Shown here piece by piece: positions 4,597-29,191 of a stretch of 64,000 nt of DNA. The position numbers and the translations under genes were made by a program. The stretch is taken from positions 62,001-126,000 of the forward strand of contig NZ_KE384083.1 of the NCBI RefSeq assembly GCF_000423705.1, in the 5' to 3' direction. Every line of letters starts with the position of its first letter. The first letter of the stretch is position 1. The notes under the pieces are model-generated. The model had not been told where the DNA came from. It did no database searches and saw nothing but the letters and a program-made list of their open reading frames with translations. The stretch is from Stappia stellulata DSM 5886 (GTDB taxonomy: Bacteria; Pseudomonadota; Alphaproteobacteria; Rhizobiales; Stappiaceae).

Positions 4597-4620
4597 TTTC
4601 TTTCCTCCCTTGGAAACAAG

Positions 4621-11741: not shown

Positions 11742-13088
11742 TCAAAGCGCCGGTTGGCGCATCAGGTAGGCGAAGTATTCGTAGCGCTCGCCGAGGAACC
11801 GTTCGGCCTTCGCCCACATCTCCTTCTCGGTGATCGAATGCGGGTATTTCTCTCCGACCAGCGAGCGCGCGAAAAGCGGACGCAGCGTCGTCATCGCCAG
11901 GATGTAGAAGAGGTCGTGATCCATCTTGTAGCTCTTGCGGCGGTCGCCATCCCAATCGTTGCGGATGGCGTCGCGGTGCTTCTTCAAAAGGAAGAGATGG
12001 GGAATGAAATAGCCCCAGAGCCGGCGCGACAGCGGACGGATTTCCTCCTCTGGAATGTCGGGGAAATAGCCGCTGATCTTGGCGGCGATCGGGTCGAATT
12101 CCAGCAGGTTTTCCAGCGTGTATTTGTCGAGCGCCGTCGGGTAACCGAACTTGCCGACCATGCGGTAGATTGCGCTGACGAGATCGCGCCACGCCTGCAT
12201 CGCCTTCGCCGGCGCCGGCAGGTGACCGATGTCCTGCACGCTGTCCAGATCGATCAGGAAAAGCTGTTTGCTCTCCACCGAATAGACGAAATTCCCCCAG
12301 TCCCCGGAGTAGCGGTACATTCCGGTCAGCGAGAAATCATGCAAGAGCTTGCCGGCCTCGCGCGCGAGCTTCCGGATAACCTCGAGCCGCACGCGTTCGT
12401 CGTCCGGATCGCCTTCCACGCCCAGGCTCTCGCGAATGCCGTCGTAATGGACGTCGAATGCGGGATCCGTGCCGCGCACCAGCCCGGCACCGAACAAAAT
12501 TTCCGAAATCCGGTAGGAGGCGGATCCAGGCGACAGCGTGATCACCGCGCCCATCGGCTGGTCCTGAAAGCGCAGGCTCTCGTCGTATTCGATCACCGCC
12601 AGCGGCGCGATGCTCGGCACGCCGTGCTTGATCAGCCGCTCCGACGACCAGTATTCGCGGTGCGCACGCTCATGCACGATGCCCCCGATCGGGCTCGGCG
12701 AGGAATAGGCGAACTTGTACTCGGCCTCGTTGGAAATGCCGAAATGCGGGTAGGTGACCAGATACTCCAGCAGATCCGTGAGCGGGGGGACCGGATCGTT
12801 GCTCGCGTCGTCATGCAGCTTGTTGGAGTATTCCGCATCGCCAGGAAGGATCGGGTTCCACAGGCCGACGCCCTTGAGTTTTGCCGCCTGAAAGGTGACC
12901 GAAGGATCGCTCTTCAACGCCACCGGCTCGTTCAGCTGCTCCCAGGCGCCACGTCCGCGGCGGGTAAAGGTCGGCACATGACCGTTCCAACTGGCAATAT
13001 CCAGGAGACGCCGGCGTTCCGCGTCCGAGATATCGAGGCCGTCGAAACTGTGGGTCACGGTGTAGTTGAGCTTGTGATGCATGTTCAT
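11742..13088 (-). CDS. Unknown protein with kinase-like (phosphotransferase-like) signature
   Basis: 448-residue soluble protein that I do not recognise by name. The middle part looks like a protein-kinase/aminoglycoside-phosphotransferase fold: an N-lobe-like segment ending in ERLIKHGVPSIAPLAVIEYD (about 150-169), then LHDFSL..YSGDWGNFVY (249-269) followed by LFLIDLDSV (276-284). This mimics the catalytic-loop D(x)4N and the metal-binding D of the DFG position. The C-terminal ~150 residues are helical and rich in aromatics. The start was taken at the ATG at 13088, with GGGG about 9 bases upstream; ATG 13082 is also possible. It lies between a YggS-type gene and an adenylation enzyme on the same strand, so phosphorylation of an amino acid or a small metabolite is a reasonable guess but no more. 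Confidence 0.6.
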   Translation of the reverse strand: MNMHHKLNYTVTHSFDGLDISDAERRRLLDIASWNGHVPTFTRRGRGAWEQLNEPVALKSDPSVTFQAAKLKGVGLWNPILPGDAEYSNKLHDDASNDPVPPLTDLLEYLVTYPHFGISNEAEYKFAYSSPSPIGGIVHERAHREYWSSERLIKHGVPSIAPLAVIEYDESLRFQDQPMGAVITLSPGSASYRISEILFGAGLVRGTDPAFDVHYDGIRESLGVEGDPDDERVRLEVIRKLAREAGKLLHDFSLTGMYRYSGDWGNFVYSVESKQLFLIDLDSVQDIGHLPAPAKAMQAWRDLVSAIYRMVGKFGYPTALDKYTLENLLEFDPIAAKISGYFPDIPEEEIRPLSRRLWGYFIPHLFLLKKHRDAIRNDWDGDRRKSYKMDHDLFYILAMTTLRPLFARSLVGEKYPHSITEKEMWAKAERFLGERYEYFAYLMRQPAL

Positions 13089-13114: not shown

Positions 13115-13795
13115 TCAGGCGTAGGTGCGGCTTCCGAAAATCGCGGCCCCGACACGCACGCTGCTGGCGCCGTGGCGAATGGCCGTCTCGTAGTCGCCGG
13201 ACATGCCCATCGAGCGGCGCGAAAGGCCGGCTTCATCCGTCAGCCGGGCGAGCAGGTCGAAATGCGGCGCCGGATCCTCGCCGGCGGGCGGAATGCACAT
13301 CAGGCCCTCGACCTCCAGACCGTGCACCTCCCGGCAGCGCGCGACAAAGGCGACCGCCTCGTCCGGATCGATGCCGGCCTTTTGCGGTTCGCGCCCGGTG
13401 TTCACCTGCACGTAGAGACGCGGCGCCCGGCCCTGTTTCCGGATTTCCCGGCCGAGCTCGGCGGCAAGCTTCTCCCGGTCGACCGTCTCGATGACGTCGA
13501 AGAGCGCAACGGCATCGCGCACTTTGTTGGTCTGCAACGGCCCGAGCAAACGCACCTCGAGACCGGGATATTGCTCCTTCAGGCCCGGCCATTTGTCCCT
13601 GGCCTCCTGCACCTTGTTTTCTCCGAAGACACGCGCGCCCGCCTCGATCACGGGGCGGATCTCGTCGGCGCTCCAGGTCTTGCTCACCGCGACGAGCGTG
13701 ACCGGGTCCCCGCCCGTCCGGCGCTCCTGTTCGGCAGCGGCGACCCTTGCCGTTACTGCATTCAGTCGTTCAACCGATTGGCTCATGGTCTTCAT
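13115..13795 (-). CDS. YggS/PROSC family PLP homeostasis protein
   Basis: 226-residue protein of the YggS/PLPBP family, which binds pyridoxal phosphate without known catalytic activity and balances free PLP and amino-acid pools. The PLP lysine is in VAVSKTWSADEI (K39). The family signatures FGENKVQEA, GPLQTNK, VNTGREPQKAG and the C-terminal SMGMSGDYETAI..GASSVRVGAAIFG are all present. The start at 13795 has AAGGA 8 bases upstream. In many bacteria this gene is next to proC or cell-division genes. Here it leads a gene set with the kinase-like and adenylation genes, which is unusual and suggests that these also deal with amino acids. Confidence 0.93.
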   Translation of the reverse strand: MKTMSQSVERLNAVTARVAAAEQERRTGGDPVTLVAVSKTWSADEIRPVIEAGARVFGENKVQEARDKWPGLKEQYPGLEVRLLGPLQTNKVRDAVALFDVIETVDREKLAAELGREIRKQGRAPRLYVQVNTGREPQKAGIDPDEAVAFVARCREVHGLEVEGLMCIPPAGEDPAPHFDLLARLTDEAGLSRRSMGMSGDYETAIRHGASSVRVGAAIFGSRTYA

Positions 13796-13845: not shown

Positions 13846-15129
13846 CTAGCCGGCCACGCCGAACATTCTTGGAACGGCCAGCGTGATTGCGGGGAAAATC
13901 GCCGCAAGCACGACGATCACGATGTGCGCACAGATGAAGGGCACCGCTTCCTTGACCGCGCCCTCATAGGGGGCGTTCGCGATCCGCGCCGCGGTCATCA
14001 GCGTGAGGCCGACGGGCGGCGTGATGTTTCCAAGGTTCAACGCAAGCAGCATCACCATGCCGGCATGCAGCGGGTCGAAGCCGAGCGCGACCAGGGCCGG
14101 CGCCAGCACGGGCACGGCGATGATGATGGCGGGAAGCACGTCGATGAACATGCCGATCACGACAAGAAGTCCGGCGACCGCCAGGATCTGGACATGCGGA
14201 TTGTCGCTCATCGTCGCGATCGTCTCTGCCGCATGCCGGGCGATCCCGGAGCGCGTCACGTACCAGCCAAGCACATTCGACGCGCCAAGCAGAAGGAACA
14301 CGACGCCGCTGAAGCTGACGGTTGACACCAGCGCTTCCCAGAGGTCGCGGCGGGAGAGTTTGCCATAGGCAAGGCCGCCGAGCGCAAGCGCGTAGATACA
14401 GGCGATCACCGAGGCTTCCGTAACGGTCGTCAGGCCGGTGAGCACGCCGACGATGATCACCACCGGGATGCCCATCGCAGCAAGCGCGCCGGTGCCCGCG
14501 CGCAAGATGACATTGAAGCGGACGGGTCCGTGCGCCCGGTAGCCGCGCCGCCAGCAAACGACACCGCTGACGAAAAGCATGCCCAGGCCCATCAGGATGC
14601 CGGGCAGGATCCCCGCGGCGAAGAGGCCCAGGATCGAGATGTCCCTCAGGGTGGCGGCATAGGCAATCATGATGATGCTTGGCGGAATGATCGGGCCGAC
14701 CATCGCCGAACAGGCCGTTACGGCGGCGCAATAGGACGCGCTGTAACCCTCGCGCCGCATGGAGGGGATCAGCGTGCGTCCGATGGCAGCGGTCTCGGTG
14801 ACCGCCGCCCCGGTGAGGCCCGCGAACATCAGGCAGGTGGTAACATTGACGTGCGACAGGGCGCCCGGCACGCGACCGAACAGGCTGCTGGCGAAGGAGA
14901 TCAGCCGGTCCGTCAGCCCCGCACGGTTCATGATCTCGGCGGTGATGATGAAATAGGGAACGGCAATCAGCACATAGCCGGAGACGCCTGCATAGAAACG
15001 ATCCGGCAGGATGCTCAAAAACTCCGGCCCGCCGATCGATACCGCGCCCGCCAGGCCGGCCGCCGTCAGGACCAGGCCGAGCGGCAGGCCTATGACCATC
15101 AAGAAGACGAAGACGAATGTCGGGCTCAT
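13846..15129 (-). CDS. TRAP transporter large permease (DctM family)
   Basis: 427-residue multi-spanning membrane protein, the channel subunit of a second TRAP transporter in this window. Family signatures include GPIIPPSIIMIAYA and LNLGNITPPVGLTLMTAARI near the C-terminus. The start is the ATG at 15129, which overlaps the stop of the small permease gene (ATGA). Open sequence further upstream is only the shadow of that gene. It is the last gene of the DctP-DctQ-DctM set. The substrate is unknown; the dehydratase upstream might point to a sugar acid, which is inference from position only. Confidence 0.94.
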   Translation of the reverse strand: MSPTFVFVFLMVIGLPLGLVLTAAGLAGAVSIGGPEFLSILPDRFYAGVSGYVLIAVPYFIITAEIMNRAGLTDRLISFASSLFGRVPGALSHVNVTTCLMFAGLTGAAVTETAAIGRTLIPSMRREGYSASYCAAVTACSAMVGPIIPPSIIMIAYAATLRDISILGLFAAGILPGILMGLGMLFVSGVVCWRRGYRAHGPVRFNVILRAGTGALAAMGIPVVIIVGVLTGLTTVTEASVIACIYALALGGLAYGKLSRRDLWEALVSTVSFSGVVFLLLGASNVLGWYVTRSGIARHAAETIATMSDNPHVQILAVAGLLVVIGMFIDVLPAIIIAVPVLAPALVALGFDPLHAGMVMLLALNLGNITPPVGLTLMTAARIANAPYEGAVKEAVPFICAHIVIVVLAAIFPAITLAVPRMFGVAG

Positions 15130-15806
15130 CGCGTCGCCTCCAGCGGCTTGTCGGTCGGGACATCCGCCCGGCCGGTTGCGGCATCCGGCGACGCATAGGC
15201 CCCCGCATCCCACGCCATGCCCCCTTCCGTCGCCGAGACAAGCTCATCGTCGAAAACGATGCCGGGATCGCGGTCCTCCAGCAGCGCGACGCCATCGACA
15301 AGATGGAGACACAAGACGAACCCGGCGACGGGAACGGACGCGGCCGTCCAGCGATGCGAAACCTGGATCGTTTCGGACACGATGAAGAGATGCGTCGCGC
15401 CCATGAAAAACTCCGCCCCGTACCACACGAGGGCCGCGGCAAAGACAGCGACAGCAAAGAGATTGACCGCCTGGGCGATCCGTCGCCCCCAGTCCGGCAA
15501 CGCTTTCGAGGCGGCCAGGATCGCGATGTGCTCGCCGTATTTGAAGGCGACGGTGATACTCAGCATCCCGAACCAGGGCAGGAACAATCGCAGGACAGAG
15601 GGCCGGGTGTTGGCATAGAGCCATGCGAGCGCGCCGCCGTCGAACAGATCGCGCTCGCCGACCGCGGAGAGCGACGAGGCAAGGACCTCCAGGGCCACGC
15701 CGATGGCGGAGATACAAAGCATCAGCAACAGGAGAACCGCACACACGGCAATCGTCGCCTTGTTCGCGACATCGCTTATCCGGTGCAGACGGTGTCTCAG
15801 GGTCAT
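15126..15806 (-). CDS. TRAP transporter small permease (DctQ family), with C-terminal extension
   Basis: About 226-residue membrane protein with four predicted membrane segments (roughly residues 15-45, 70-95, 110-135 and 150-175). It has a hydrophilic, acidic C-terminal tail of about 45 residues that is not usual for the family. The large N-terminal extension upstream of the ATG at 15806 is arginine-rich and not family-like, so I start at MTLRHRLHRI, with AAGGA further upstream. The stop overlaps the start of the large permease gene. It couples the binding protein to the channel subunit in the inner membrane. Confidence 0.85.
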   Translation of the reverse strand: MTLRHRLHRISDVANKATIAVCAVLLLLMLCISAIGVALEVLASSLSAVGERDLFDGGALAWLYANTRPSVLRLFLPWFGMLSITVAFKYGEHIAILAASKALPDWGRRIAQAVNLFAVAVFAAALVWYGAEFFMGATHLFIVSETIQVSHRWTAASVPVAGFVLCLHLVDGVALLEDRDPGIVFDDELVSATEGGMAWDAGAYASPDAATGRADVPTDKPLEATR

Positions 15807-15957
15807 TTCCAGAAGATCCTTGGATCGCGCAAGGGACAGGGGTCTCGAAAACAGGCGCGCGGGGACCGGCCACAAGATGTCGTATCCGGCGTGGACCCCG
15901 ATGGCTCAAACGTCGCTGTGCACGTGTCGCGACACGCGAAGACGACGATGCCGGGCG

Positions 15958-17067
15958 TCAGTCGAGATATCTTTCGATGCTGGCCCGACGCTGGCTTTGC
16001 TGGATGCGGTCGATTTCGGCGCGCATCTCGTCGAACAACGCAGCCTTCGGACCAAATTCCTCGACAAGCCAGTCACGGTAGATCGGCTGCGCGATGTCGC
16101 GCATGCGCGCCTTCTCCGCCTCGGGAAGCACATAGCATTCGTCGAACTTCTCGCAGGAATTCGCCCAGCCGATCACGGTGATCTGCGTTGCGATGCCGTG
16201 GGCCATGGCAATCGCCTCGCGGGCCGAGGTGACGATGATTTCCTGATACTCGCGCGGCAGATCCTTGAACCACGCCTCGCTCACGCTCCACGTGATCGTG
16301 TTGTAAACGTGCCCGCTCCACGTCGTGTAATCGGTGACGTCGTAGAGCTTGAAAATGTCGTTGACGCCCGGCGCATGAAAATGGCCGTCAACCAACCCTG
16401 TCGCCAGACCGGTCTGCAGCTCGCCCCAGGGCAGCGTCGTCGGGGACGCGCCGAGCGCGGTCATGATCGTCATATGCGCCTGGTTTTCCTCGACGCGAAT
16501 GCGCATTCCCTTGAGGTCCTCGACAGTCTTGATCAGCCGCTTGTTGTTGGCGAAGGCGACGAACCCGCCGCCGTCATCGAGCGTTCCGAGGTAGCGCAGG
16601 CCGCTTTCCCCAATCATCGGCTTCATGAAGTCCGCAAACCAGGCGGAATCGAAGAAGGCCCAGGCCGTGCGATAATCGGGAAAAAGAAACGGCGCCGTGA
16701 TCATCTCGTAGTTGCGATAGAAAGACGCCTGCGTTCCCGACCCCAGCATGACCGACTGGATGGTCTTGCCCGCGCGGGCCTGCTGGGCGACCTCGACCTC
16801 GCCGCCGAGCGCACCGTTGCCGAACACCTCGACGTCGACCGCGCCGTCTGTGGCGGCTTCGACCAGTTGCTCGAAATGCTTCAGAGCCGGCGCCGTCTCG
16901 TTGTTCTTGAGATCGTCCGGATAGAGATGCGCGATGGTCATCGTGTAGTCGGCCGCCTGCGTGGCCGACACCAGTCCGAAGAGCGAGACGAGAAGGCCGG
17001 CAACCAGTGCGCGGCGAAGGCGGGGTGTGACCGATTGCGTCCGCGCCGCGTCGAAGGCGATATCCAT
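15958..17067 (-). CDS. TRAP transporter solute-binding protein (DctP family)
   Basis: 369-residue periplasmic binding protein with an N-terminal signal peptide (arginine-rich start, hydrophobic core ALVAGLLVSLFGLVSA, likely cleavage after ATQAA). The mature part begins DYTMTIAHLYP and contains the DctP hallmark 'EDLKGMRIRVEEN' with the ligand-contacting arginine. The DYTTWSGHVYNTITWSVSEAWF segment is also characteristic. The start at 17067 has GGGGGG upstream; frame upstream of that is poor. It is the first gene of the second TRAP operon. The specificity is not evident. Confidence 0.92.
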   Translation of the reverse strand: MDIAFDAARTQSVTPRLRRALVAGLLVSLFGLVSATQAADYTMTIAHLYPDDLKNNETAPALKHFEQLVEAATDGAVDVEVFGNGALGGEVEVAQQARAGKTIQSVMLGSGTQASFYRNYEMITAPFLFPDYRTAWAFFDSAWFADFMKPMIGESGLRYLGTLDDGGGFVAFANNKRLIKTVEDLKGMRIRVEENQAHMTIMTALGASPTTLPWGELQTGLATGLVDGHFHAPGVNDIFKLYDVTDYTTWSGHVYNTITWSVSEAWFKDLPREYQEIIVTSAREAIAMAHGIATQITVIGWANSCEKFDECYVLPEAEKARMRDIAQPIYRDWLVEEFGPKAALFDEMRAEIDRIQQSQRRASIERYLD

Positions 17068-17351
17068 GAGGCCCCCCACGCCCCGACTCCGACACGTCTT
17101 ACCAGTGCTGGGACAAGACGTTGGCGCGGCGTCGATCATGGGCCCCTCCAGGTTTAAAAGACCGGCTGTAGGTGCAGCCTCTTCAAAACCTATTCAGCAA
17201 CCACAGGTCGGTCTAAGTCTATTTTTCTATTTTTGATGACACCCAAGTCATTCTTGCGGGATGAGCAATCCTTGAAACAAAATCCCACGCACAAGACGAC
17301 CGGCAGCCGGCTCGCTCCCGGTCGTCGTTTTCGCTGGGCAGCCCCCGCCCG
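17068..17351 (-). promoter_or_regulatory. Intergenic region: ilvD-like terminator side and TRAP-2 promoter
   Basis: This spacer of 284 bases holds an AT-rich stretch around 17205-17245 (runs of T) that probably contains the promoter of the second TRAP operon. Nearer the dehydratase gene lies a hairpin, listed separately. No open reading frame of note is present. Confidence 0.4.
17295..17326 (-). terminator. Hairpin downstream of the IlvD-family gene
   Basis: Perfect 9-bp inverted repeat GACGACCGG / CCGGTCGTC about 26 bases beyond the dehydratase stop codon. On the minus strand it is followed only by TTGTGCG, so the U-tract is weak. On the plus strand it is followed by GTTTT. It is likely to act as a terminator or as a 3'-end stabiliser. 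Confidence 0.5.
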
Positions 17352-19455: not shown

Positions 19456-20460
19456 CTATCCGTGTCCGTTCAAAAGCACGGCCGTGGCCCCTCTCGCGGC
19501 CGAACGCTCCGCAAACGCGGTGCCGGGCCCGCCGGTGTCCCCGGTCACGGAGGCGCCCTGCTCGCCGATCGTTTGCGAGATCTCGACAAGCCGGGTCACG
19601 GTCGGGGACGGATCGTCCCGGCGCCAGACCAGCCCGGTCTCGATCATCGGCGGTTCCCCGTCGAGCTCGACGTAGACCACACCGTCGCGGCCGAGACGCT
19701 TCAGCGATCCCGGCACGAGGGCGATACCCATCCCGGCCGACACGAGGCTGATGATGGTCTGCATCTGTATCGCTTCCTGCCCGATCGTCGGCTGGATCCC
19801 GTTGGTGACGAAATAGGTGGTGATGATGTCATGAAAGGCCGGCGCGCTTCTTCGCGGGAACAGCACCAGGGGGGCCTCCGCGACATCCTTCAGGCGCAAC
19901 CGGCCCTGCGCCAGTTCGATGCGCCCGCGACGCACCCACTCCTCCGGCACCGCCGCCACGAGCGGCTCGCGCAACAACGGCAGATAGGCAAGCGAAGCAT
20001 GGAGCGTCGCATGCAGCGGAATGATCAGTCCGGCGTTGATCTCCCCCTGCAGCAAGGCCTCGATCTGAAGATCGCTGGTCATTTCCTTCAGCGACACCTT
20101 CACGTCCGGATAGGTCGCCCCGTAGTGGCTGATCAGGTCGGGAAGGAGATTGTAATCCGCCGTGGTCACGAAGCCGAGCTTCAAACTCCCGATCTCGCCT
20201 CTGGACAGTTGCTTCGCCAGCCCCGGCAGGGCCTCCACATCCTCCAGCAGTCTCGTGACATGCGACAAGAGATGCTCGCCAACAGGGGTCAGTGCGACGT
20301 TGCGCTTCGTTCGCTTGAACAGCGTAACCGACAATTCCTCCTCCAACGCAAGAATGGCCTGGCTCAAGGGCGGCTGCGTCATGCAGAGCCGTTCGGCCGC
20401 CCGGCCGAAATGCAACTCTTCCGCTACCGCTACGAAAAACTTTAGCCTCCGGAGATTCAT
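19456..20460 (-). CDS. LysR family transcriptional regulator (divergent to carrier-protein cluster)
   Basis: 334-residue LysR-type regulator. The N-terminal winged helix-turn-helix (residues 1-60; AVAEELHFGRAAERLCMTQPPLSQ then 'LEEELSVTLFKRTKRNV') is followed by a periplasmic-binding-protein-like effector domain (about 90-295). It has a ~35-residue C-terminal tail rich in Gly/Ala that is longer than usual. The ELHFGRAAERL form is common in regulators of aromatic or acid catabolism (BenM/CatM-like group). It faces the flavoprotein gene across a 465-base AT-rich spacer, so it is the natural candidate to control the 20926-27766 cluster. Confidence 0.9.
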   Translation of the reverse strand: MNLRRLKFFVAVAEELHFGRAAERLCMTQPPLSQAILALEEELSVTLFKRTKRNVALTPVGEHLLSHVTRLLEDVEALPGLAKQLSRGEIGSLKLGFVTTADYNLLPDLISHYGATYPDVKVSLKEMTSDLQIEALLQGEINAGLIIPLHATLHASLAYLPLLREPLVAAVPEEWVRRGRIELAQGRLRLKDVAEAPLVLFPRRSAPAFHDIITTYFVTNGIQPTIGQEAIQMQTIISLVSAGMGIALVPGSLKRLGRDGVVYVELDGEPPMIETGLVWRRDDPSPTVTRLVEISQTIGEQGASVTGDTGGPGTAFAERSAARGATAVLLNGHG

Positions 20461-20925: not shown

Positions 20926-22074
20926 ATGGATTTCAGCTTTTCTCCCGAACAAGACGCCTTCAAGGAAACCGTCGCTGAATTCGCGAAAACGGAGCTGAAC
21001 GAGGGAGACCTGAAACACCGGGACGCCGAGTGCATCCTGTCCCGCGAGCTGTGGAAGAAGATTGCCGACTTCGGGATCCTCGGCCTGCCGTTCGACAAGA
21101 CCTATGGCGGGGGCGAAAAGGACATCATCACCACGGTTCTGGCGATGGAGGCTTTGGGCTACGGCTGCCGTGACAACGGACTGCTGTTCAGCATGAACGG
21201 GCAAATGTGGACCGTGCAGATGCCGATCGCGCAGTTCGGAACCGACGCACAGAAGGACAAATACCTGCGCGGCCTGATCAAGGGCGAGCTCATCGGCGCG
21301 CATGGCATCACGGAAGCGGAAGCCGGGTCGGACGTGATGGCGCTCGGGACCACCGCAACCCGCGACGGCGACGACTATGTGCTGAACGGTGCGAAAGTCT
21401 TCTGCACCAACGGGCCGGTTGCCGACGTCTTCGTGATCTTCGCCACCGTGGACAAGAGCGCCGGCTCGCTCGGGCTGACCGGCTTTGTCGTGGAGCGGGA
21501 CACGCCCGGCCTGATCGTCAGCGAGAACCGCAAGAAAATGGGACTTCGCACCTCTCCCATGGCCTGGCTGACGCTGGAGGACTGCCGCGTGCCGGCGACC
21601 GCAAGGATCGGCAAGGAGGGCCAGGGCGGCCGGATCTTCAACAATTCCATGGAGTGGGAACGCTCCTCGATCCTCGCCAATCTCGTCGGCGCGATGGAGC
21701 ACCAGGTGGAGGACTGCATCCGCCATGCAAACAAGCGCACGCAATTCAGAAAACCGATCGGCAAGTTCCAGTCGGTTTCGAACCGCATCGTCGACATGAA
21801 ACTGCGCCACGAGACGTCCCGGCTGCTGCTCTACAAGGTCGCCTGGCTGAAGAAGACCAAGGGAAACGCGGCGATGGAGGCGGCGCTGGCCAAGCTGTAT
21901 CTGAGCGAGGCGTGGGTGGCCTCCTGCCAGAACTCCGTGGTGATCCACGGCGGTTACGGATACATGGCCGACCAGGAGGTGGAGCGCGACTTTCGCGATG
22001 CCGTGGGAAGCCTGCTCTACTCCGGAACATCCGACATCCAGCGCACCATCGCCGCGCGCGCCCTGGGATTGTAA
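20926..22074 (+). CDS. Acyl-CoA-dehydrogenase-like flavoprotein, probably carrier-protein dependent
   Basis: 382-residue protein of the acyl-CoA dehydrogenase superfamily (FAD, helical N-domain about 1-115, beta-domain about 120-235, helical C-domain about 236-382). ITEAEAGSDV (128-137) and SGTSDIQR (366-373) are the family signatures. The glutamate of the usual YEGT motif is replaced by serine (YSGT, S366), so the base must lie elsewhere, possibly E245 in SMEWERSSI as in the isovaleryl-type or the prolyl-carrier dehydrogenases. The overall look (GFVVERDTPGL, NNSMEWER, RKPIGKFQSVSNRIVDMKLR) recalls PltE/RedW/CloN3, which oxidise carrier-bound proline to pyrrole-2-carboxyl. That match is from memory. 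It is the first gene of the cluster. The start at 20926 has a GGAG site. Confidence 0.85.
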   Translation: MDFSFSPEQDAFKETVAEFAKTELNEGDLKHRDAECILSRELWKKIADFGILGLPFDKTYGGGEKDIITTVLAMEALGYGCRDNGLLFSMNGQMWTVQMPIAQFGTDAQKDKYLRGLIKGELIGAHGITEAEAGSDVMALGTTATRDGDDYVLNGAKVFCTNGPVADVFVIFATVDKSAGSLGLTGFVVERDTPGLIVSENRKKMGLRTSPMAWLTLEDCRVPATARIGKEGQGGRIFNNSMEWERSSILANLVGAMEHQVEDCIRHANKRTQFRKPIGKFQSVSNRIVDMKLRHETSRLLLYKVAWLKKTKGNAAMEAALAKLYLSEAWVASCQNSVVIHGGYGYMADQEVERDFRDAVGSLLYSGTSDIQRTIAARALGL

Positions 22075-22429
22075 GTCCGCCCACGGACCTGAAACGCACA
22101 GGTCTCATTCAATATTTGAATTTCAACGTATGTTCATAGATTAAAATTGTAATTTCGATCAAAATAACAAAGGAATTCGTATTTTGTATCGATAAATATA
22201 AATATAGTATCTATAATACGTTGACTTAACTGATAATAAACGTATTCTTTTCTGTTATAGATGGAAATATATTCGAATAATAAAACCTGAGGTGGTTTTA
22301 TTCTCCGAAAGGCAGATTGCCGCAGGCAAGACTGTCCGGGGGCGTACATCCCGCATCGCAGGCTGTGAATGACGCAGGTCATCACGCAGGGGCGCGAGCG
22401 GTGTTGAACACAACAGACAGGAGGCCGCC
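22075..22429 (+). promoter_or_regulatory. AT-rich spacer with possible promoter and hairpin before carrier-protein gene
   Basis: 355 bases with no gene, strongly AT-rich from about 22110 to 22300. A possible promoter is TTGACT (22221-22226), 16 bases, TATTCT (22243-22248). A perfect hairpin AATAAAACC/GGTTTTATT lies downstream at 22279-22302. The carrier-protein gene may thus have its own promoter rather than being cotranscribed with the flavoprotein. Confidence 0.4.
22279..22302. promoter_or_regulatory. Perfect 9-bp inverted repeat upstream of carrier-protein gene
   Basis: AATAAAACC and GGTTTTATT flank a 6-base loop (TGAGGT). It could be an operator or a terminator for the flavoprotein transcript; there is only a short TT-C after the stem, so termination would be weak. 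Confidence 0.4.
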
Positions 22430-22708
22430 ATGGATGCGCAGACAATCGAGAACGACGAGGTTCACAAGAAAATCTACGACTATCTGGTGGAGAACGCCGG
22501 CGTGAATGTCTCGGGAGGGATCGACCCGGAGGAAAATCTTCTCGACAGCGGCATTCTCGACAGTCTCGGGATCGCGGAGATCACCGAATACGTTGAAAAG
22601 GAATTCGGTATCGAGATCGACGAAGACGAAATCACCTCGCAGAACTACCGCACGCTCACCGCGTTCACCGCCTTTTGTCGCGAGAAGATCGCCGCCTCGG
22701 CGACGTGA
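22430..22708 (+). CDS. Acyl/aminoacyl carrier protein
   Basis: 92-residue acidic carrier protein. The phosphopantetheine-attachment serine is S45 in ENLLDSGILDSLGIAEI, followed by the second and third helices (EYVEKEFGIEIDEDEI, NYRTLTAFTAFCREK). This type, with LLDSGILDSLG and a helix-3 pattern NYRTL, resembles the discrete carrier proteins used with stand-alone adenylation enzymes (CloN5, PltL, DltC-like) more than fatty-acid AcpP. It sits between an acyl-CoA-dehydrogenase-like gene and a radical SAM gene, so the intermediates of this cluster are presumably attached to it. A phosphopantetheinyl transferase is not present in the window. Confidence 0.93.
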   Translation: MDAQTIENDEVHKKIYDYLVENAGVNVSGGIDPEENLLDSGILDSLGIAEITEYVEKEFGIEIDEDEITSQNYRTLTAFTAFCREKIAASAT

Positions 22709-22752
22709 TCTGACTGATCTCCTCACCAGGGGCGAAAAGGGACAGACCGACC

Positions 22753-24477
22753 ATGTCAAGCAAAGTGAAGGCCGACCTCATTCTGATCCATGCGCCGGCC
22801 ATCTACGACTTCCGCGACCGCGACGATTTCGTGCTGGGCTGGTACGCCAGCCAGGAAAGCAGCAACGTCACGCCGATCTTCGAGATGCACCCTCTCGGCT
22901 TCCTGTCGATCAAGAGTTTCCTCGGCGAACGCGATCTCGACGTAAAGATCGTCAATGTCGCCTCCCTCATGCTCAAGCACCCGACGCTCGACGTGGAAAA
23001 GCTGCTCGAGCATCTCGACGCCCCGGTCATCGGTCTCGATCTGCACTGGCTGCCGCACTGTCAGGGCTCGATCGAAGTTGCGGGACTGGTGAAGAAGGTC
23101 CTCCCGGAGAGTTTCGTGGTCTTCGGCGGGATCGTCTCGACCTATTACGCCCGCGAGATGATGCAATATCCGCAGATCGACGGCGTCATTCGCGGCTACG
23201 ACACGCTGGAGCCGCTCGCGGAGCTCGTGGCGCAAGCCAAGCGCGGCGTGCGCGGACGCTTCAATGTCGAGAACATGATCTACAAGGACAAGGGCGAGGT
23301 GGTCGACAACGGTCACAGCTACACGCCCGAGGTGCTGAACGACGTCGCCATCGACTGGTCGAAAATGTTTCCCAAGACCTCCAGCCTTCTCAACATGCCG
23401 AACCTGATGGTGCTGCCCAACACCGGCTGCCAGCAGAGCTGCGGCTGGTGCTCCGGCTCCCGCTGGGCTTATCAGCGCATGATGAACGTGGAGAAGAAGA
23501 CGGTCTTCCACCGGCGCTCCGAACAGCTGGCGCGCGAGATCCTGACCTTCCCGAAGACGGAATCGCCGCTCAGCGTCTACACGCTCCAGGCCTATTCGGA
23601 ATCCTCCCCGCGCCTGCTCGACTATCTGGCCGCCGTTTCCGACAGCGGCGTGGTGAAATCGGTTTCCTTCGAGCAGTTCCGGCTGACGAAGATTTCGGTT
23701 CTCAAACAGATGGTGGAGGTCGCGCCGAACCTCGACATCTACATCAACCTCTCTCCCCAGTCTCACGACGTGGAGATCAGCCGCCTGACCGGGCGCGGCA
23801 CCTACACGAACGAGGAGATGGAGGAGTGGATCGCGGCCGCGATGGATATCGGCATCAAGGGCGTCTACCTCTGGTACACGATTGGAATGCCGAAGCAGAC
23901 GCATGAATCGGTGATGGAAACGGTCGCCTATTCGGCCCGGCTCATGGAGCGGTTTCCCAACGACAAGATCATCCCGACGATCTTCGGCATGGTGCCCTTC
24001 CTCGATCCCGGCTGCCAGTGGTTCGAGGAGCCGGACCAGCACGGCTACACGGTGTTCCACCGGGATCTGGAATCGCACCGCCAGTCGCTGACGCAGCCGC
24101 GCTGGCGCGACGCCATGAACTACGAGACCGAGTGGATGAAGCGCGACGAATTCCTGCCCAGCATGTATGAGGCGATGCAGGTTATGGCGAACCACAAGGC
24201 CGACTACGGCCGGATCACCAGGCGCAGCATCGACATCGTCAACGGACGGATCGACCACTTGCGCCATCTGACCGGATCGATCGACCGGGCGATGGAGACG
24301 GACGGGCGCCTGCCCGCCTCGCTCAAACGCGAGATCGGCGCGCACAACGACGAGATCCTGTCCTATGCGGCGGACGTCGCGCTGGTGAAAAAGCCGCTGT
24401 CCGGCCGCTGGTACGACGATCACACGGTGCCGCGCGAGATCATCGACGCCTGCGTGCGCGAACGCGCAGCCGCCTAG
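22753..24477 (+). CDS. B12-binding domain radical SAM enzyme (probable C-methyltransferase)
   Basis: 574-residue protein with an N-terminal cobalamin-binding-like Rossmann domain (about 1-165, with GLDLHWLPHCQGS and FGGIVSTYYA) and a radical SAM core beginning at LPNTGCQQSCGWCSG, whose CX3CX2C cysteines are C226, C230 and C233. About 190 C-terminal residues are of unknown role. The general layout resembles the 'Ta0216 family' of B12-binding radical SAM proteins, as I recall it. Class B enzymes of this type methylate unactivated carbons with methylcobalamin; CloN6/CouN6, which methylates C5 of the carrier-linked pyrrole, is the closest functional precedent given the neighbours. The gene lies 44 bases after the carrier-protein gene. 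A non-methylating reaction is possible. Confidence 0.88.
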   Translation: MSSKVKADLILIHAPAIYDFRDRDDFVLGWYASQESSNVTPIFEMHPLGFLSIKSFLGERDLDVKIVNVASLMLKHPTLDVEKLLEHLDAPVIGLDLHWLPHCQGSIEVAGLVKKVLPESFVVFGGIVSTYYAREMMQYPQIDGVIRGYDTLEPLAELVAQAKRGVRGRFNVENMIYKDKGEVVDNGHSYTPEVLNDVAIDWSKMFPKTSSLLNMPNLMVLPNTGCQQSCGWCSGSRWAYQRMMNVEKKTVFHRRSEQLAREILTFPKTESPLSVYTLQAYSESSPRLLDYLAAVSDSGVVKSVSFEQFRLTKISVLKQMVEVAPNLDIYINLSPQSHDVEISRLTGRGTYTNEEMEEWIAAAMDIGIKGVYLWYTIGMPKQTHESVMETVAYSARLMERFPNDKIIPTIFGMVPFLDPGCQWFEEPDQHGYTVFHRDLESHRQSLTQPRWRDAMNYETEWMKRDEFLPSMYEAMQVMANHKADYGRITRRSIDIVNGRIDHLRHLTGSIDRAMETDGRLPASLKREIGAHNDEILSYAADVALVKKPLSGRWYDDHTVPREIIDACVRERAAA

Positions 24478-24632
24478 TCTCGCCACGTTGTCGGGGCGGG
24501 CAAAGGCCTGCCCCTGCCCCGTTTCCCCAACCGGATGGCGTCGGCCAGGGTGGCTTTGCCGCGCCTCATGCCGCGCGCCGCATCCGGGCCAGGCCTGCGC
24601 CAGGGCCGGACCATCACCGAGAGACAACGGCC

Positions 24633-25622
24633 ATGACGAACGACAGCGTTGGAATACTCGCCGCCGCCCGGTTCCTGCCTCCCCGCAACCTCGCGCTCGA
24701 TGGAATCGCGCATGCGGAAAGCGGCGCTGCCGAACCGGAGACCCTGCGCGGTCTGGGCATCGAGAGCGTGCATGTGTTCGAAGGCGAAAGCCCGACGGAG
24801 ATGGCCGTTGCGGTCTCTCAATCCGCGATGAGCGAGGCCGGCCTCGGTCCGCTCGAGCTGGATGCGATCATCGACTTTTCCGTCATGCCGCAGCGCTATG
24901 TCGAACCCGCCTGGTCGATGAGCAACGAGCTGCAGGCGGAGCTTGGCGCGAAAAAGGCCTTCACCCTCGGGTTCAGCGGCGGCGGCTCAGGCAACATTCA
25001 TGCAGCGCTGAAATTCGCACGTGCATTGATCCGCGCCAACGACGATGTGAACACCATTCTTCTGGCCGCCGCCGACCGGGCGATCCCGGGAAACCGCGTG
25101 CTCAGCGCCGGCGAGGCGGTCACGGTCATCGGCGATGCGGCAACGGCCCTGATCGTGCAGCGCAACGCCCCGTCGGCAACCATTGTCGACACGATCTCCG
25201 CGTCCAACGGGGCGCTGCACGACGTGCTTAACATTCCCGGCGGCGGCATGGCCCATCCCACGCGGCTCGACCTCTACAAGCTGACCCTGGACGAGGCGAA
25301 ATACCGCTCCCGCGACCACATGGGGGAGCTGCGCGTGCTGACCGACAAGATGCTCGCGCGCAACGGGCTCGCCCGCGAAGGCATCGACCACTTTCTCACG
25401 GCCAACATCTCGGACGACGACACCGAGGCCTTTTCCCGCACCATGCAGACGAACGGTCGCCTCCACCGGGACAATCTGGGCGCCTGCGGTCACGTTCATT
25501 CCTGCGACCTGGTGCTGAACTACATGAGCCTGCGCGGCAATGGCGCGGCTCGCGGAGATCACGTGCTGATGGCCTCCCACGGGATGGGCTTCTTTCTCGG
25601 CGCGACACTGCTGAAACTGTGA
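24633..25622 (+). CDS. KASIII-like protein with Ser in place of the catalytic Cys
   Basis: 329-residue thiolase-fold protein of the 3-oxoacyl-ACP synthase III superfamily. Aligned without gaps to its neighbour, the nucleophile position is S119 (GFSGGGSGNIHAAL). The usual FabH histidine (PHQAN motif) is not seen, but the position of FabH's asparagine has H287, in GHVHSCD, with D292 five residues on. A Ser-His-Asp set of this kind is known from the KASIII-like acyltransferase DpsC of daunorubicin synthesis. The protein may therefore be an acyltransferase, or the non-catalytic half of a heterodimer with the next gene. The start is the ATG at 24633, about 155 bases after the radical SAM gene, within a GC-rich spacer. 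Confidence 0.82.
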   Translation: MTNDSVGILAAARFLPPRNLALDGIAHAESGAAEPETLRGLGIESVHVFEGESPTEMAVAVSQSAMSEAGLGPLELDAIIDFSVMPQRYVEPAWSMSNELQAELGAKKAFTLGFSGGGSGNIHAALKFARALIRANDDVNTILLAAADRAIPGNRVLSAGEAVTVIGDAATALIVQRNAPSATIVDTISASNGALHDVLNIPGGGMAHPTRLDLYKLTLDEAKYRSRDHMGELRVLTDKMLARNGLAREGIDHFLTANISDDDTEAFSRTMQTNGRLHRDNLGACGHVHSCDLVLNYMSLRGNGAARGDHVLMASHGMGFFLGATLLKL

Positions 25623-25636
25623 CAGGGACGAAAGCC

Positions 25637-26647
25637 ATGGATCACGTCGGAATTCTGTCGGAAGCCTTCTATCTTCCCCCGGACAAGAAGCGGGTCGAGG
25701 ACGTTTTCCGCGACGAGAGCGTCCCCTTCGGCACCCTGTCCAAGAACATCGACTTCCAGCGCGACATCGGCATCGAGGACATCCACGTCACCGACGAACT
25801 TCCGTCGGTGCTGGCGCTGGAAGCGGCAAGACGGGCGATGGACCAGGCGGGCGTCTCCGCCGAAGAAATCGATCTCGTCGTCGATTTCACCAGCATCCCC
25901 GAGGACTATGTCGGCCCGACCTGGTCGGCGGCAGGACTTGTCCAGCAGGAACTCGGCCTCGTCAACGCCTTCTCGACGGCGGTGAACACCGGCGGCTGCG
26001 CCAGCTACCACCTGGCGCTCAAATCGGTAATGGCGTTGATGCTCTGCGATGACGACGTGCAAACGGCACTTCTATTTGCCGGTGACCGCACCCCGGATCT
26101 CAACAAGACCTATTATCCGATCACCGTTGCCTCCGACGGCGGCAGCGCGCTGGTGCTGCGCAAGAACGCGGACCGCGGCCGGATCCTGGAGGTGGAAACC
26201 ATCTCCATCGGGCGCCTGCACGATGTCTGGTACGTGCCGGGCCTTCAAAACCGCAAGCCGAACGAGGAGGTGACCGAAAAGCTCCTGCACATGTACGCCA
26301 AGATGGACAAGTTCAACGAGGGCGTCATCCCGATCAATTTCCGCATGTTCGGCAAGGTGATGGACCGGCTTTTGAAGAAGCTCGACATGTCGCATGACGA
26401 CGTGGACTATTACATCTACCCGACCTTCTCGACTTGGGATCAGGCCTATTTCATGAAAAAATTCGGCCTCACGCCGGACAAGGTCTATACCAGCGCGCTC
26501 AGGCACCGTGGCCATGTCCAGGAAAGCGACATGGTGATCAATTACGCCGAAGCCGTGGATCAGGGGCTGATCAAGCCAGGCGACGCGGTGATGGTGGTGT
26601 CAAACGGCGCGGGCTTCGCCTGGTCGGCGGCGCTGATCCGTCACTGA
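25637..26647 (+). CDS. KASIII-like protein with catalytic Cys
   Basis: 336-residue KASIII-superfamily protein related to the preceding gene product. The nucleophile is C121 in NTGGCASYHLAL, followed by H293 and D298 in RHRGHVQESDMVINY. The FabH PHQAN histidine is replaced (YIYPTFST). The C-terminal GAGFAWSAALI is the family end. Such Cys-His-Asp KASIII homologues include acyltransferases that move an acyl group from a carrier to an alcohol or amine (CerJ-like); CloN2 in clorobiocin synthesis is a KASIII homologue needed for transfer of the pyrrole acyl group. The ATG at 25637 has AGGGAC upstream and lies 15 bases after the preceding stop. The two are probably translated together and may form a complex. 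Confidence 0.85.
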   Translation: MDHVGILSEAFYLPPDKKRVEDVFRDESVPFGTLSKNIDFQRDIGIEDIHVTDELPSVLALEAARRAMDQAGVSAEEIDLVVDFTSIPEDYVGPTWSAAGLVQQELGLVNAFSTAVNTGGCASYHLALKSVMALMLCDDDVQTALLFAGDRTPDLNKTYYPITVASDGGSALVLRKNADRGRILEVETISIGRLHDVWYVPGLQNRKPNEEVTEKLLHMYAKMDKFNEGVIPINFRMFGKVMDRLLKKLDMSHDDVDYYIYPTFSTWDQAYFMKKFGLTPDKVYTSALRHRGHVQESDMVINYAEAVDQGLIKPGDAVMVVSNGAGFAWSAALIRH

Positions 26648-26659
26648 CCCGTTGTGCGC

Positions 26660-27766
26660 ATGAGCGCCGGTCTCCACGACAGCACCGACGTCCTTTTGCG
26701 CCGGGACGGAATGGCCGGCCGGATCACGCTGAACCGGCCGCGGTCCCTCAATCTGCTCACCGGGGCGATGGTGCGCGCAATGCATGGCGCGCTCGATCTG
26801 TGGCGCGCCGATCCGGATGTCCATGTGCTGATCATCGATGCGCAAGGCCGGCGCGCCTTTTGTGCCGGCGGCGACATTGGGGAAGTCCATACCCATGTGG
26901 CCGCGGGCGATTTCTCCGCCGCACGGGCCCATGTGCGAGACGAATACCGGCTGGACCTCAAGATTGCCCGCTACCCGAAACCTGTGGTCGCCCTCATGGA
27001 CGGCCAGGTCATGGGCGGCGGCGTCGGACTCGGCTGCCACGCCAGCCATCCGGTCGTAACCGAGCGCTTCCGGCTCAGCCTTCCCGAATGCGCCATCGGA
27101 TGGGTCCCGGACTCCGGGTCGACGGCTCTGCTGGCCCGCACGCCGCATGCGGTCGCCGCGCTCATGGCGTTGACCGGATTGCCGATTGGCGCAGCCGATG
27201 CGCTCGACCTCGGTTTCATCCGGCATGTCATCGATGGCGACCGCCGCGACGAGCTGATCGCAACGCTGTGCGCCACGGGCGCCCCTTCCGCGCTCGGGCC
27301 CCTTTCCGCTCCGGGCGACGAACCGGCCCTGCGCCACCGGGCGGCGGCGCTCGCGCGCGATACCGCGATCACGTCCCCGGCCGATCTGGATCGCGTGCTC
27401 GCCGGCGTGACGCCCGAACATGAACTGCACGACTGGTGCCGAAAACTGCGAAAAGCGCTCGCGCGCGGCGCGCCACTTGCGCAGACGCTGGCCCTGCGTG
27501 CCCTCGAAATCCAACGACGACACAACACCGTCGGACGTGCCCTGGCGCTGGAACTGCGGATCGTCTCGCGTCTGATGAAACATCCGGACTTCAGCGAGGG
27601 CATTCGCGCGATGATGATCGACCGCGACAAGAGGCCAACCTGGTCCGTCTCGCCGGGCGAAACAATCTCGCGAACGGACACGGACGCATTTCTGGTTGCC
27701 AGCAGAAAAAGTCCGGCCTGCGCCGACAACGTCATACGAGGGGCATCCCGCTGGTCTGATTTTTGA
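26660..27766 (+). CDS. Enoyl-CoA hydratase/isomerase family, 3-hydroxyisobutyryl-CoA-hydrolase-like
   Basis: 368-residue crotonase-superfamily protein of the long HIBYL-CoA hydrolase type. Oxyanion-hole motifs are FCAGGDIGEVH (about 70-80) and MGGGVGLGCHASH. The acidic active-site pair lies in LPECAIGWVPDSGS, and the C-terminal DFSEGIRAMMIDRDKRPTW (about 314-332) is diagnostic of this subfamily. Known members cleave 3-hydroxyacyl-CoA thioesters. In this cluster it could release an acyl group from CoA or the carrier protein, or belong to valine catabolism by coincidence. The ATG at 26660 was chosen over a GTG at 26654; the gene is 12 bases from the previous one, so they are probably cotranscribed. 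Confidence 0.88.
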   Translation: MSAGLHDSTDVLLRRDGMAGRITLNRPRSLNLLTGAMVRAMHGALDLWRADPDVHVLIIDAQGRRAFCAGGDIGEVHTHVAAGDFSAARAHVRDEYRLDLKIARYPKPVVALMDGQVMGGGVGLGCHASHPVVTERFRLSLPECAIGWVPDSGSTALLARTPHAVAALMALTGLPIGAADALDLGFIRHVIDGDRRDELIATLCATGAPSALGPLSAPGDEPALRHRAAALARDTAITSPADLDRVLAGVTPEHELHDWCRKLRKALARGAPLAQTLALRALEIQRRHNTVGRALALELRIVSRLMKHPDFSEGIRAMMIDRDKRPTWSVSPGETISRTDTDAFLVASRKSPACADNVIRGASRWSDF

Positions 27767-28865: not shown

Positions 28866-29191
28866 GTTCCTGCTCCTCACGGGTCACGTCGCGACGGGCA
28901 GTCAGCGGCAGCGCTCCGCCCGCTAGGGTAGGGATTATTTTCCCTTGCCCGGCCCGCGAGAACAAATATCGTTTTCGTCTATATTTCTGGCGCTTAACGG
29001 GACAGGCGAAAGCGCCCGCGCAACATCCTCTCCAGCGCGCGCCTCTCGCCCCTTGCGGGGAACACGCCGCCAGGTGCGGTGATCGTCTCGACGGTCCCAC
29101 CGGTGTCAAAGCGCGACGAAGCGCCAGGCGAAGCCGCCGACCGCGGCCACGCCACGCCTGGGCGCGCCCCCCCGTAGCGACCGGTTGGAGA
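28866..29191 (-). promoter_or_regulatory. Intergenic region between cupin and oxygenase genes
   Basis: 326 bases. No gene was found. A short AT-rich patch at about 28930-28995 (ATTATTTTCCC... ATATTTCTGG) may contain the promoter of the oxygenase gene. The remainder is GC-rich with no clear hairpin-plus-T terminator. Confidence 0.35.

What the first reader, a model, noticed from the sequence alone, without database searches (positions are those of the whole stretch)
20926..26647. Carrier-protein cluster with the enzyme set of CloN/CouN 5-methylpyrrole-2-carboxyl biosynthesis
Seen directly: an acyl-CoA-dehydrogenase-like flavoprotein, a discrete carrier protein (DSL serine), a B12-binding radical SAM enzyme (CX3CX2C) and two KASIII-like proteins in a row, with a stand-alone adenylation enzyme at 10093-11697 in the same window. 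Known: in clorobiocin and coumermycin A1 pathways CloN4 (A domain), CloN5 (PCP), CloN3 (dehydrogenase), CloN6 (B12-radical SAM methyltransferase) and CloN2/CloN7 (acyl transfer) make and transfer a 5-methylpyrrole-2-carboxyl group from proline. Inferred: this alphaproteobacterium makes a related methylated pyrrole, pyrroline or other amino-acid-derived acyl group and transfers it to an unknown acceptor. I do not know of this arrangement in alphaproteobacteria.
Basis: partly seen in the sequence, partly recalled or inferred. Interest (0 to 1): 0.92.

Follow-up and report, generated by a model that had tools for sequence, protein, structure and literature searches.

The report
Retuned carrier-protein amino-acid pathway
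A rare, laterally spread bacterial gene cluster appears to load an amino acid onto a small carrier protein, oxidise it and alter it with a vitamin-B12 radical enzyme; it descends from enzymes that handle proline, but its substrate pockets have changed, so its product is probably new.

Summary
The observed genes are there, and the adenylation (A) enzyme 11 kb away belongs with them. The flavoprotein is in the prolyl-carrier-protein dehydrogenase clade (best PDB match AnaB), not the CoA clade. In 6 of 6 block A enzymes the pocket reads D(L/I)FQ(F/L)(A/S)IDV; prolyl-type A enzymes read DL(F/L)Y(L/I/A)AL(V/A)C. The dehydrogenase has Gly92-Gln93 in 10 of 10 block copies, against Ala92-His93 beside prolyl-type A enzymes (8 of 8). 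Both enzymes descend from prolyl-type ancestors but their pockets differ together, so the likely substrate is a polar proline analogue or another polar amino acid. The unit is larger: A enzyme, an orphan, perhaps kinase-like protein, second copies of YggS and of dihydroxy-acid dehydratase (IlvD), a TRAP transporter and LysR. It was found in Stappia (and a near-identical MAG), one Mesorhizobium (1 of 146 genomes of its genus) and one Salinarimonadaceae MAG. The dedicated IlvD could be a pathway enzyme or, boldly, a self-resistance copy marking an IlvD inhibitor. Product unknown.

The parts
20926..22074 (+). ACAD: acyl-CoA-dehydrogenase-fold flavoprotein of the prolyl-carrier-protein dehydrogenase clade; Glu245 in the base position; pocket Gly92-Gln93, Gly127
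   Evidence: PDB best match 4irn AnaB 437 bits, then 6cxt_B and 5zw0; corrected tree; pocket residues
22430..22708 (+). PCP: discrete type II peptidyl carrier protein, GILDSL phosphopantetheine site
   Evidence: PF00550; nearest PDB chains are peptidyl carrier proteins 2my5/2my6, PltL and 6cxt_A; alignment
22753..24477 (+). B12-binding radical SAM enzyme, TIGR04190-like
   Evidence: 383 bits to TIGR04190, cut-off 500; CX3CX2C invariant 9 of 9; top Foldseek hits TokK and CysS with a low-confidence model
24633..25622 (+). KASa: KASIII-like protein, nucleophile Ser or Cys, FabH His and Asn replaced
   Evidence: PF08541; alignments
25619..26647 (+). KASb: KASIII-like protein, Cys in 5 of 5 aligned, FabH His and Asn replaced, GHxxxxD motif
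   Evidence: PF08541; alignments; PDB list incl. DpsC 4xs7
26654..27766 (+). ECH_2 / 3-hydroxyisobutyryl-CoA hydrolase-like protein, least conserved (43-63%); possible thioester hydrolase
   Evidence: PF16113 291 bits, NF004127 above cut-off; 8 of 9 loci, absent in L019; identities
10093..11697 (-). Stand-alone adenylation enzyme; pocket DLFQFAIDV(K)
   Evidence: TIGR01733 above cut-off; homologue in 9 of 9 block genomes; 4 of 249 genomes of the order; code; tree
11742..13088 (-). Orphan 448-aa protein, possibly kinase-like; no Pfam, PDB-sequence, PADLOC or plasmid match
   Evidence: 4 of 249 genomes of the order, all block-bearing; weak kinase-like fold hits, low-confidence model
13115..13795 (-). 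Second, block-specific YggS-family PLP-binding protein
   Evidence: TIGR00044 above cut-off; 2 copies in 4 of 4 block genomes, 1 in 3 of 3 relatives searched
13846..15213 (-). TRAP transporter large permease DctM
   Evidence: PF06808; conserved
15126..15875 (-). TRAP small permease (DctQ position)
   Evidence: position and conservation only; not scanned against families
15958..17139 (-). TRAP solute-binding protein DctP
   Evidence: PF03480
17352..19040 (-). Second, block-specific dihydroxy-acid dehydratase (PRK00911-type IlvD; the ORF reaches 19106)
   Evidence: NF002068 840 bits and TIGR00110 739 bits, both above cut-off; 84-100% in 4 of 4 block genomes, at most 40% in the other 6 searched; canonical long IlvD also in the genome (L081)
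19456..20460 (-). LysR-type regulator, divergent from ACAD
   Evidence: PF00126/PF03466; conserved in 8 of 9 loci

Best explanation
A laterally spread biosynthetic cluster for a carrier-protein-tethered, desaturated and radical-modified amino acid. The A enzyme (10093-11697) activates an amino acid that is probably not plain proline (a polar proline analogue or another polar amino acid) and loads it on the PCP. The ACAD removes the C-alpha proton with Glu245 and desaturates the aminoacyl thioester on the PCP. The B12-radical SAM enzyme methylates, or otherwise modifies, a carbon of the tethered unit. KASa and KASb move the acyl group to another carrier or acceptor, or condense it, and the ECH_2 protein may hydrolyse a thioester. 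The TRAP transporter, a second IlvD, a second YggS and an orphan, perhaps kinase-like protein belong to the same unit; they supply or handle the precursor or protect the host. Shown: gene content, linkage, clade of the A enzyme and ACAD, coordinated pocket differences, block-specific extra IlvD and YggS. Inferred: every reaction, their order and the product.
For: ACAD: the best PDB matches are AnaB (437 bits), 6cxt_B (313; Bmp3 according to a legend in PMC11177257) and L-prolyl-PCP dehydrogenases (290, 288), ahead of the first CoA enzyme at 272 bits; in the corrected tree the 19 PCP-type rows stand apart (98/100) from 15 rows (14 distinct) of paralogues of the same genome, and the block is sister to Microvirga and AnaB (94/91). 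Glu245 is in the base position described for AnaB/Bmp3 (passages of PMC11177257). PCP: PltL and 6cxt_A among nearest PDB chains. A enzyme: about 11-14 kb from the rSAM gene in 8 of 9 block genomes; absent at E<=1e-90 from the other 245 of 249 genomes of the order. Pocket differences; the A tree puts the block with prolyl-type enzymes (81/97, moderate), apart from the DLLQ group (100/99). MAG contig: IlvD-dctP-dctQ-dctM-YggS-orphan-ACAD contiguous and co-directional. rSAM: top five Foldseek hits TokK and CysS. KAS: FabH His and Asn replaced in both.
Against: No reaction is tested. Pocket reading rests on alignment positions whose GrsA numbering I recall; a changed pocket does not exclude proline. 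Glu245 is not diagnostic: 4 of the 14 distinct paralogues have Glu there too. Both predicted models are poor (pLDDT 56 and 59). The independent occurrences are only three lineages. In the MAG the A enzyme is on another contig, the PCP-rSAM-KAS part lies about 26 kb from ACAD, and ECH_2 is absent there. The ACAD falls below the PigA and RedW curated cut-offs (418 of 500, 390 of 650), as does the Microvirga enzyme beside a prolyl-code A domain.
Confidence: 0.6

Rival explanations
1. One reading: L-proline is loaded, oxidised to pyrrolyl-PCP, C-methylated by a CloN6-like enzyme and transferred, giving a 5-methylpyrrole-2-carboxyl group.
For: Enzyme classes fit; ACAD and A enzyme descend from prolyl-type lineages; the L-proline-carrier ligase 6o6e_B is the best PDB match of the A enzyme made of one stretch (279 bits); rSAM model nearest to B12-radical methylases.
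Against: A pocket Q278/D330 in 6 of 6 and ACAD Gly92-Gln93 in 10 of 10, against the prolyl pattern. No CloN7-like hydrolase among the block genes scanned. CloN6 itself could not be compared.
Confidence: 0.17
2. A second IlvD and a second YggS are self-protection genes: the cluster makes an amino-acid-derived inhibitor of dihydroxy-acid dehydratase (or of PLP enzymes).
For: A bona fide IlvD in addition to the canonical one, block-specific and 84-90% conserved; precedent: aspterric acid with the resistant DHAD AstD (abstract of PMC11528067); second YggS.
Against: IlvD sits with transporter genes and a LysR like a metabolic enzyme; it may make or use a pathway intermediate. No inhibition data.
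Confidence: 0.15
3. An ordinary CoA-based fatty-acid or branched-chain catabolic locus.
For: ECH_2/3-hydroxyisobutyryl-CoA hydrolase, IlvD, TRAP transporter, LysR; methylmalonate-semialdehyde dehydrogenase gene upstream of IlvD in the MAG.
Against: Discrete PCP, stand-alone A enzyme, PCP-type ACAD and B12-rSAM are not expected in such a locus; distribution is sporadic.
Confidence: 0.05

Closest known systems
CloN/CouN 5-methylpyrrole-2-carboxyl pathway (clorobiocin, coumermycin A1)
   Same: A enzyme, PCP, PCP-dehydrogenase, B12-radical SAM enzyme, KASIII-like protein (set recalled; CloN3 and CloN6 roles also in passages of PMC11177257)
   Different: A and ACAD pockets not prolyl-type; two KASIII-like proteins, no CloN7-like hydrolase found among the block genes scanned; IlvD, YggS, TRAP, orphan protein added; CloN6 sequence not compared
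AnaB/AnaC/AnaD prolyl-ACP module of anatoxin-a (PDB 4irn)
   Same: Closest solved dehydrogenase (52% identity)
   Different: Ala-His pocket motif in AnaB, Gly-Gln here; AnaC and AnaD and the polyketide synthase are recalled, not compared
Type II A/PCP/dehydrogenase trio of Microvirga sp. VF16 plasmid (L056)
   Same: ACAD 53%, A enzyme about 40% identical, discrete PCP
   Different: Prolyl code DLFYLALVC and Ala-His; no match to rSAM or KAS in the 25-kb stretch
Ectoine-synthase/Trp-like clusters with A code DLLQxTxDS (Streptomyces, Nonomuraea plasmid records)
   Same: A enzyme with Q278 and D330 plus PCP-type ACAD
   Different: A enzymes form a separate clade (100/99); ACAD has Thr92; cupin and trp-like genes; no radical SAM protein named in the annotated tables seen
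TokK and CysS (B12-radical SAM methylases)
   Same: Best Foldseek matches of the rSAM model; entry titles name pantetheine-linked ligands for both
   Different: Low-confidence model; no convincing sequence-level PDB match

Membership tests
CloN/CouN pathway | Prolyl-specific stand-alone A enzyme | tested here: not met
   Pocket D(L/I)FQ(F/L)(A/S)IDV in 6 of 6 against DLFYLALVC-type in prolyl-linked enzymes; prediction only, no assay
CloN/CouN pathway | Discrete PCP | tested here: met
CloN/CouN pathway | PCP-dehydrogenase of the prolyl clade | tested here: met
   Clade met; pocket motif differs
CloN/CouN pathway | CloN6 orthologue | not testable with these tools
   No CloN6 sequence in reach; block protein is TIGR04190-like
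CloN/CouN pathway | CloN2-like KASIII and CloN7-like alpha/beta-hydrolase acyltransferases | tested here: inconclusive
   Two KASIII-like proteins present, orthology to CloN2 not tested; no alpha/beta hydrolase among the block genes scanned
L-prolyl-PCP dehydrogenase (NF045652 RedW / NF053553 PigA) | Score above curated cut-off | tested here: not met
   390 of 650 and 418 of 500 bits
L-prolyl-PCP dehydrogenase clade | Catalytic Glu in base position | tested here: met
   E245 in the block and all six prolyl-linked comparators; not diagnostic, since 4 of 14 distinct CoA-type paralogues have it too
L-prolyl-PCP dehydrogenase clade | Ala-His at positions 92-93 | tested here: not met
TIGR04190 B12-binding/radical SAM family | Score above curated cut-off of 500 bits | tested here: not met
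   383, 389 and 409 bits in three members scanned
Cobalamin-dependent radical SAM methylase | B12 domain plus CX3CX2C radical SAM domain | tested here: met
Cobalamin-dependent radical SAM methylase | Methyl transfer activity | not testable with these tools
   needs an assay
Decarboxylating FabH-type KASIII | Cys-His-Asn triad | tested here: not met
   His and Asn replaced in KASa and KASb; KASa nucleophile Ser in 4 and Cys in 3 of 7
Dihydroxy-acid dehydratase (IlvD) | Above TIGR00110 cut-off | tested here: met
   739 bits, cut-off 618

The most novel reading that the evidence does not exclude
The cluster makes a new carrier-protein-built, radical-modified amino acid that poisons branched-chain amino-acid or PLP metabolism, and the block's second IlvD (with the second YggS) is its self-resistance copy: a bacterial counterpart of the aspterric acid/AstD pair, found in marine and plant-root alphaproteobacteria.
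Probability: 0.13. Interest if true: 0.87.

Novelty: new variant of a known kind. Interest (0 to 1): 0.62.

Why it matters
Type II A/PCP/dehydrogenase trios are readily read as proline-to-pyrrole machinery. Here both substrate pockets differ together within that lineage, which predicts that the trio can be re-aimed at another amino acid and gives a short residue signature for spotting it. The block adds a B12-radical SAM enzyme from a family without a reaction known to me, an orphan protein, and duplicate IlvD and YggS genes whose role (pathway or self-protection) is directly testable. An IlvD inhibitor would also matter as a herbicide or antibacterial lead.

Tried and rejected
Plain CoA catabolism was rejected because the ACAD is in the PCP clade and A/PCP genes are linked. 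Proline as substrate was lowered, not excluded. The idea that the A enzyme shares descent with the DLLQ (ectoine-synthase-linked) group because both have Q278 and D330 was rejected: the tree keeps them apart, so the likeness looks convergent. The idea that block IlvD is the only IlvD of the genome was rejected: a canonical long IlvD is present (L081). A cobalamin riboswitch: Rfam at gathering scores finds only tRNA-Cys in the window. Two structure predictions gave poor models; the fold hits are suggestive only. Plasmid searches: rSAM gave 3 weak records (21.8-24.8% identity), KASb 31 records below 60% (the 20 rows listed 24-28%), the orphan none. TIGR04190 in 299 genomes of the phylum: 10 reach E<=1e-20, the own genome with 382 bits and the others with 75-88 bits, none over cut-off. 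Paper searches: TIGR04190, a five-term search and DLLYLALV returned nothing; the AnaB search was swamped by unrelated words; ectoine synthase with carrier protein and related terms gave five papers, of which I saw the listing only; Stappia with adenylation domain or radical SAM led to PMC12997852, of which I saw 12 of 15 passages (none shown mentions this block; the terms pyrrole and acyl-CoA dehydrogenase have no hit). PMC11177257: passages only. PMC11528067: abstract and outline. Of 1195 plasmid records with an ACAD match I fetched 17, by choice among the 40 rows listed, so counts are of those 17.

A fault mended: in the first ACAD tree 10 of the 16 paralogue rows of the own genome were taken in a wrong reading frame, which also spoiled two of the four paralogue rows. 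One search failed to find frames (a bad option) and gave a tree of 19 rows without paralogues. One search repeats it with 15 paralogue rows in the right frame (L054 dropped as the same frame as L053; the L055 row came out identical to L043, so 14 are distinct). The clade holds better than before; the claim that Glu245 is absent from CoA-type paralogues fell and is withdrawn.
Full report
WHAT IS THERE. The five genes of the finding are real and at the stated coordinates: ACAD 20926-22074, PCP 22430-22708, B12-binding radical SAM 22753-24477, KASa 24633-25622, KASb 25619-26647. An ECH_2 protein (26654-27766) follows. The A enzyme is at 10093-11697 on the other strand. The host is Stappia-like (inferred): the search for related loci with the rSAM protein gave 9 loci, six named Stappia, one Rhodobacteraceae MAG (97% identical), one Salinarimonadaceae MAG and Mesorhizobium sp. 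Root554. The order ACAD-PCP-rSAM-KASa-KASb-ECH is in 8 of these 9.

THE UNIT IS LARGER. The A enzyme has a homologue in 9 of 9 block-bearing genomes searched (the own genome and eight others); the five other copies aligned are 48-79% identical to the window's. In 8 of 9 genomes it lies about 11-14 kb from the rSAM gene (my subtraction), and in the MAG it is on a separate short contig. Between A and ACAD lie, in the same order in Stappia and Mesorhizobium, an orphan protein, YggS, dctM, dctQ, dctP, IlvD and LysR; Mesorhizobium has a further TRAP-like set between LysR and ACAD. In the MAG one contig carries IlvD-dctP-dctQ-dctM-YggS-orphan-ACAD head to tail; the PCP-rSAM-KASa-KASb part lies on a contig of the same length (44,786 bases), about 26 kb away if it is the same contig. 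So ACAD is tied to the upstream genes in one lineage and to the PCP-rSAM genes in the others.

DISTRIBUTION. In the class sample rSAM was found in 1 of 385 genomes (the own genome, E<=1e-30); in the order sample in 5 of 397, all of the same genus; in the genus of Root554 in 1 of 146. In 249 genomes of the order the orphan protein (E<=1e-10) and the A enzyme (E<=1e-90) each occur in 4, the same 4, all block-bearing. These are few independent events (three lineages), so the agreement is strong for linkage but not a large statistical sample. The scatter suggests lateral transfer.

DEDICATED IlvD AND YggS. The block IlvD passes the curated cut-offs of NF002068 (840 bits, cut-off 644) and TIGR00110 (739, cut-off 618). 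It is 84-100% identical in 4 of 4 block genomes searched, and the best match in the other 6 is at most 40%. The own genome and Root554 also carry the canonical long type (NF009103, 1172 and 1180 bits). YggS is likewise doubled: 2 copies in G000, G807, G1014 and G1015, 1 in G620, G756 and G944.

DEHYDROGENASE. The best PDB matches are AnaB prolyl-ACP dehydrogenase (4irn, 437 bits), 6cxt_B (313; listed as butyryl-CoA dehydrogenase, but named Bmp3 in a figure legend of PMC11177257) and L-prolyl-PCP dehydrogenases (5zw0 290, 6af6 288); the first CoA-type enzyme follows at 272. NCBIfam ranks PigA and RedW first, below their cut-offs; the Microvirga enzyme beside a prolyl-code A enzyme also falls below them. 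In the corrected tree 19 PCP-type rows form a group (98/100) apart from 15 rows (14 distinct) of paralogues of the own genome, and the ten block rows (100/100) are sister to Microvirga plus AnaB (94/91) (it replaces, in which 10 of 16 paralogue rows were in a wrong frame). Glu245 is in the position described as the catalytic base of AnaB and Bmp3 (passages of PMC11177257); 4 of the 14 distinct paralogues have Glu there too, so it is not diagnostic.

POCKETS. Reading the nine A-pocket positions (GrsA numbering recalled; positions set on the alignment) gives D(L/I)FQ(F/L)(A/S)IDV in 6 of 6 block enzymes. In the 17 plasmid loci fetched, eight have a prolyl-type reading: DLFYLALVC in Microvirga, S. 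clavuligerus, Methylocystis, Mycetohabitans (two pieces) and S. microflavus, DLLYLALVC in Brasilonema, DLFYAALAC in Thioclava, and a partial DLFYIA in Pseudoalteromonas. That this is the proline code is recalled; the Pseudoalteromonas locus is annotated with PigD, in line with prodigiosin-type use of proline. All eight partner ACADs have Ala92-His93. The block ACADs have Gly92-Gln93 and Gly127 in 10 of 10. Pseudohalocynthiibacter (A code DIFFIGSMC) shares Gly-Gln and Gly127. Seven loci have A codes DLLQxTxDS (six) or DLLHLAIDT (Aliiroseovarius), all with Thr92 in the ACAD; NBC_00557 is a further odd one (DLFFLCL, Asn-His). The block A enzyme groups with the prolyl-type enzymes of S. clavuligerus, Brasilonema, Microvirga and S. 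microflavus and with Pseudohalocynthiibacter (81/97, moderate); Methylocystis and Thioclava form their own branch, and the DLLQ group another (100/99) (26 rows; the Mycetohabitans and Pseudoalteromonas A enzymes were left out). So the pocket with Gln278 and Asp330 probably arose inside a prolyl-type lineage. An acidic residue at 330 and Gln at 278 suggest a polar or cationic side group; this is inference.

RADICAL SAM. The protein is nearest TIGR04190 (383 bits; cut-off 500) and far from other named families (next 41 bits). No PDB sequence match with the single protein; the profile gives four weak hits at E 0.019-0.48 that look like chance. A low-confidence model (pLDDT 59) matches TokK and CysS best (ranks 1-5, Foldseek E 3e-9 to 4e-6, TM about 0.25), then MiaB and many unrelated TIM barrels. 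TokK and CysS are B12-radical methylases (recalled) whose entry titles name pantetheine-linked ligands. This fits a PCP-bound substrate, but is weak. CloN6 could not be compared.

KAS PROTEINS. KASb keeps the Cys in all five copies aligned; KASa has Ser in 4 and Cys in 3 of 7. Both lack the FabH His of HQAN and the Asn, and carry GHxxxxD as DpsC does; DpsC itself keeps a His near the HQAN position. Acyl transfer is more likely than decarboxylative condensation; this is inference.

ORPHAN PROTEIN. No Pfam match at E<=1e-5, PDB (one chance hit at E 0.61), PADLOC or plasmid match. The model is poor (pLDDT 56); the first hits are SelO/YdiU, maltokinase, RNase L and WaaP, none under E 0.02. Kinase-like is a guess.

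VERDICT. It is a new variant of the type II A/PCP/dehydrogenase kind. The product, the substrate and the reason for the second IlvD and YggS are open and testable.

Noticed in passing
L112, L113, L114, L116, L118 (also unannotated L110, L119): Plasmid clusters with A enzyme (code DLLQxTxDS or DLLHLAIDT), PCP-type ACAD and, in the five annotated loci, an ectoine-synthase-like cupin, in four of them (not L118) with TrpA-, TrpC-, TrpF- or TrpD-like genes: looks like a thiotemplated route to a tryptophan or indole analogue.
   Followed up: partly
L056:10054-13146 and L057:7564-11741: PCP/A/ACAD sets in Microvirga and Pseudohalocynthiibacter beside polysaccharide-type genes (annotated in L057; in L056 by my reading of ORF starts only): perhaps an aminoacyl-derived decoration of a polysaccharide.
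   Followed up: no
window 28095-28880 (-): WelO5-like / 2OG-Fe(II) oxygenase (PF22814, 50 bits), conserved downstream in the Stappia-type loci with enough flank, no match in L019 or L020.
   Followed up: no
window 29195-29983 (-): 263-aa protein with a C-terminal ectoine-synthase domain near the block in Stappia-type loci, no match in L019 or L020.
   Followed up: no
window 1455-9752: A second TRAP-like set, PCC-domain protein, AMP-ligase and thiolase next to the A gene, found in L030 and in part in L027 and L029, not in the Mesorhizobium stretch L026.
   Followed up: partly
window about 20460-20870 and 22100-22300: Strikingly AT-rich gaps before ACAD and between ACAD and PCP in a region of about 64% GC; no Rfam match.
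   Followed up: no
L107:3154-4836: Methylmalonate-semialdehyde dehydrogenase gene (TIGR01722 above cut-off) directly upstream of the block IlvD in the Salinarimonadaceae MAG.
   Followed up: no
L109:11118-15125 and L059:7140-11116: KASIII-ACP-A-ACAD mini-clusters with prolyl-type A code in S. microflavus and Mycetohabitans; the Mycetohabitans A gene is annotated in two pieces.
   Followed up: partly
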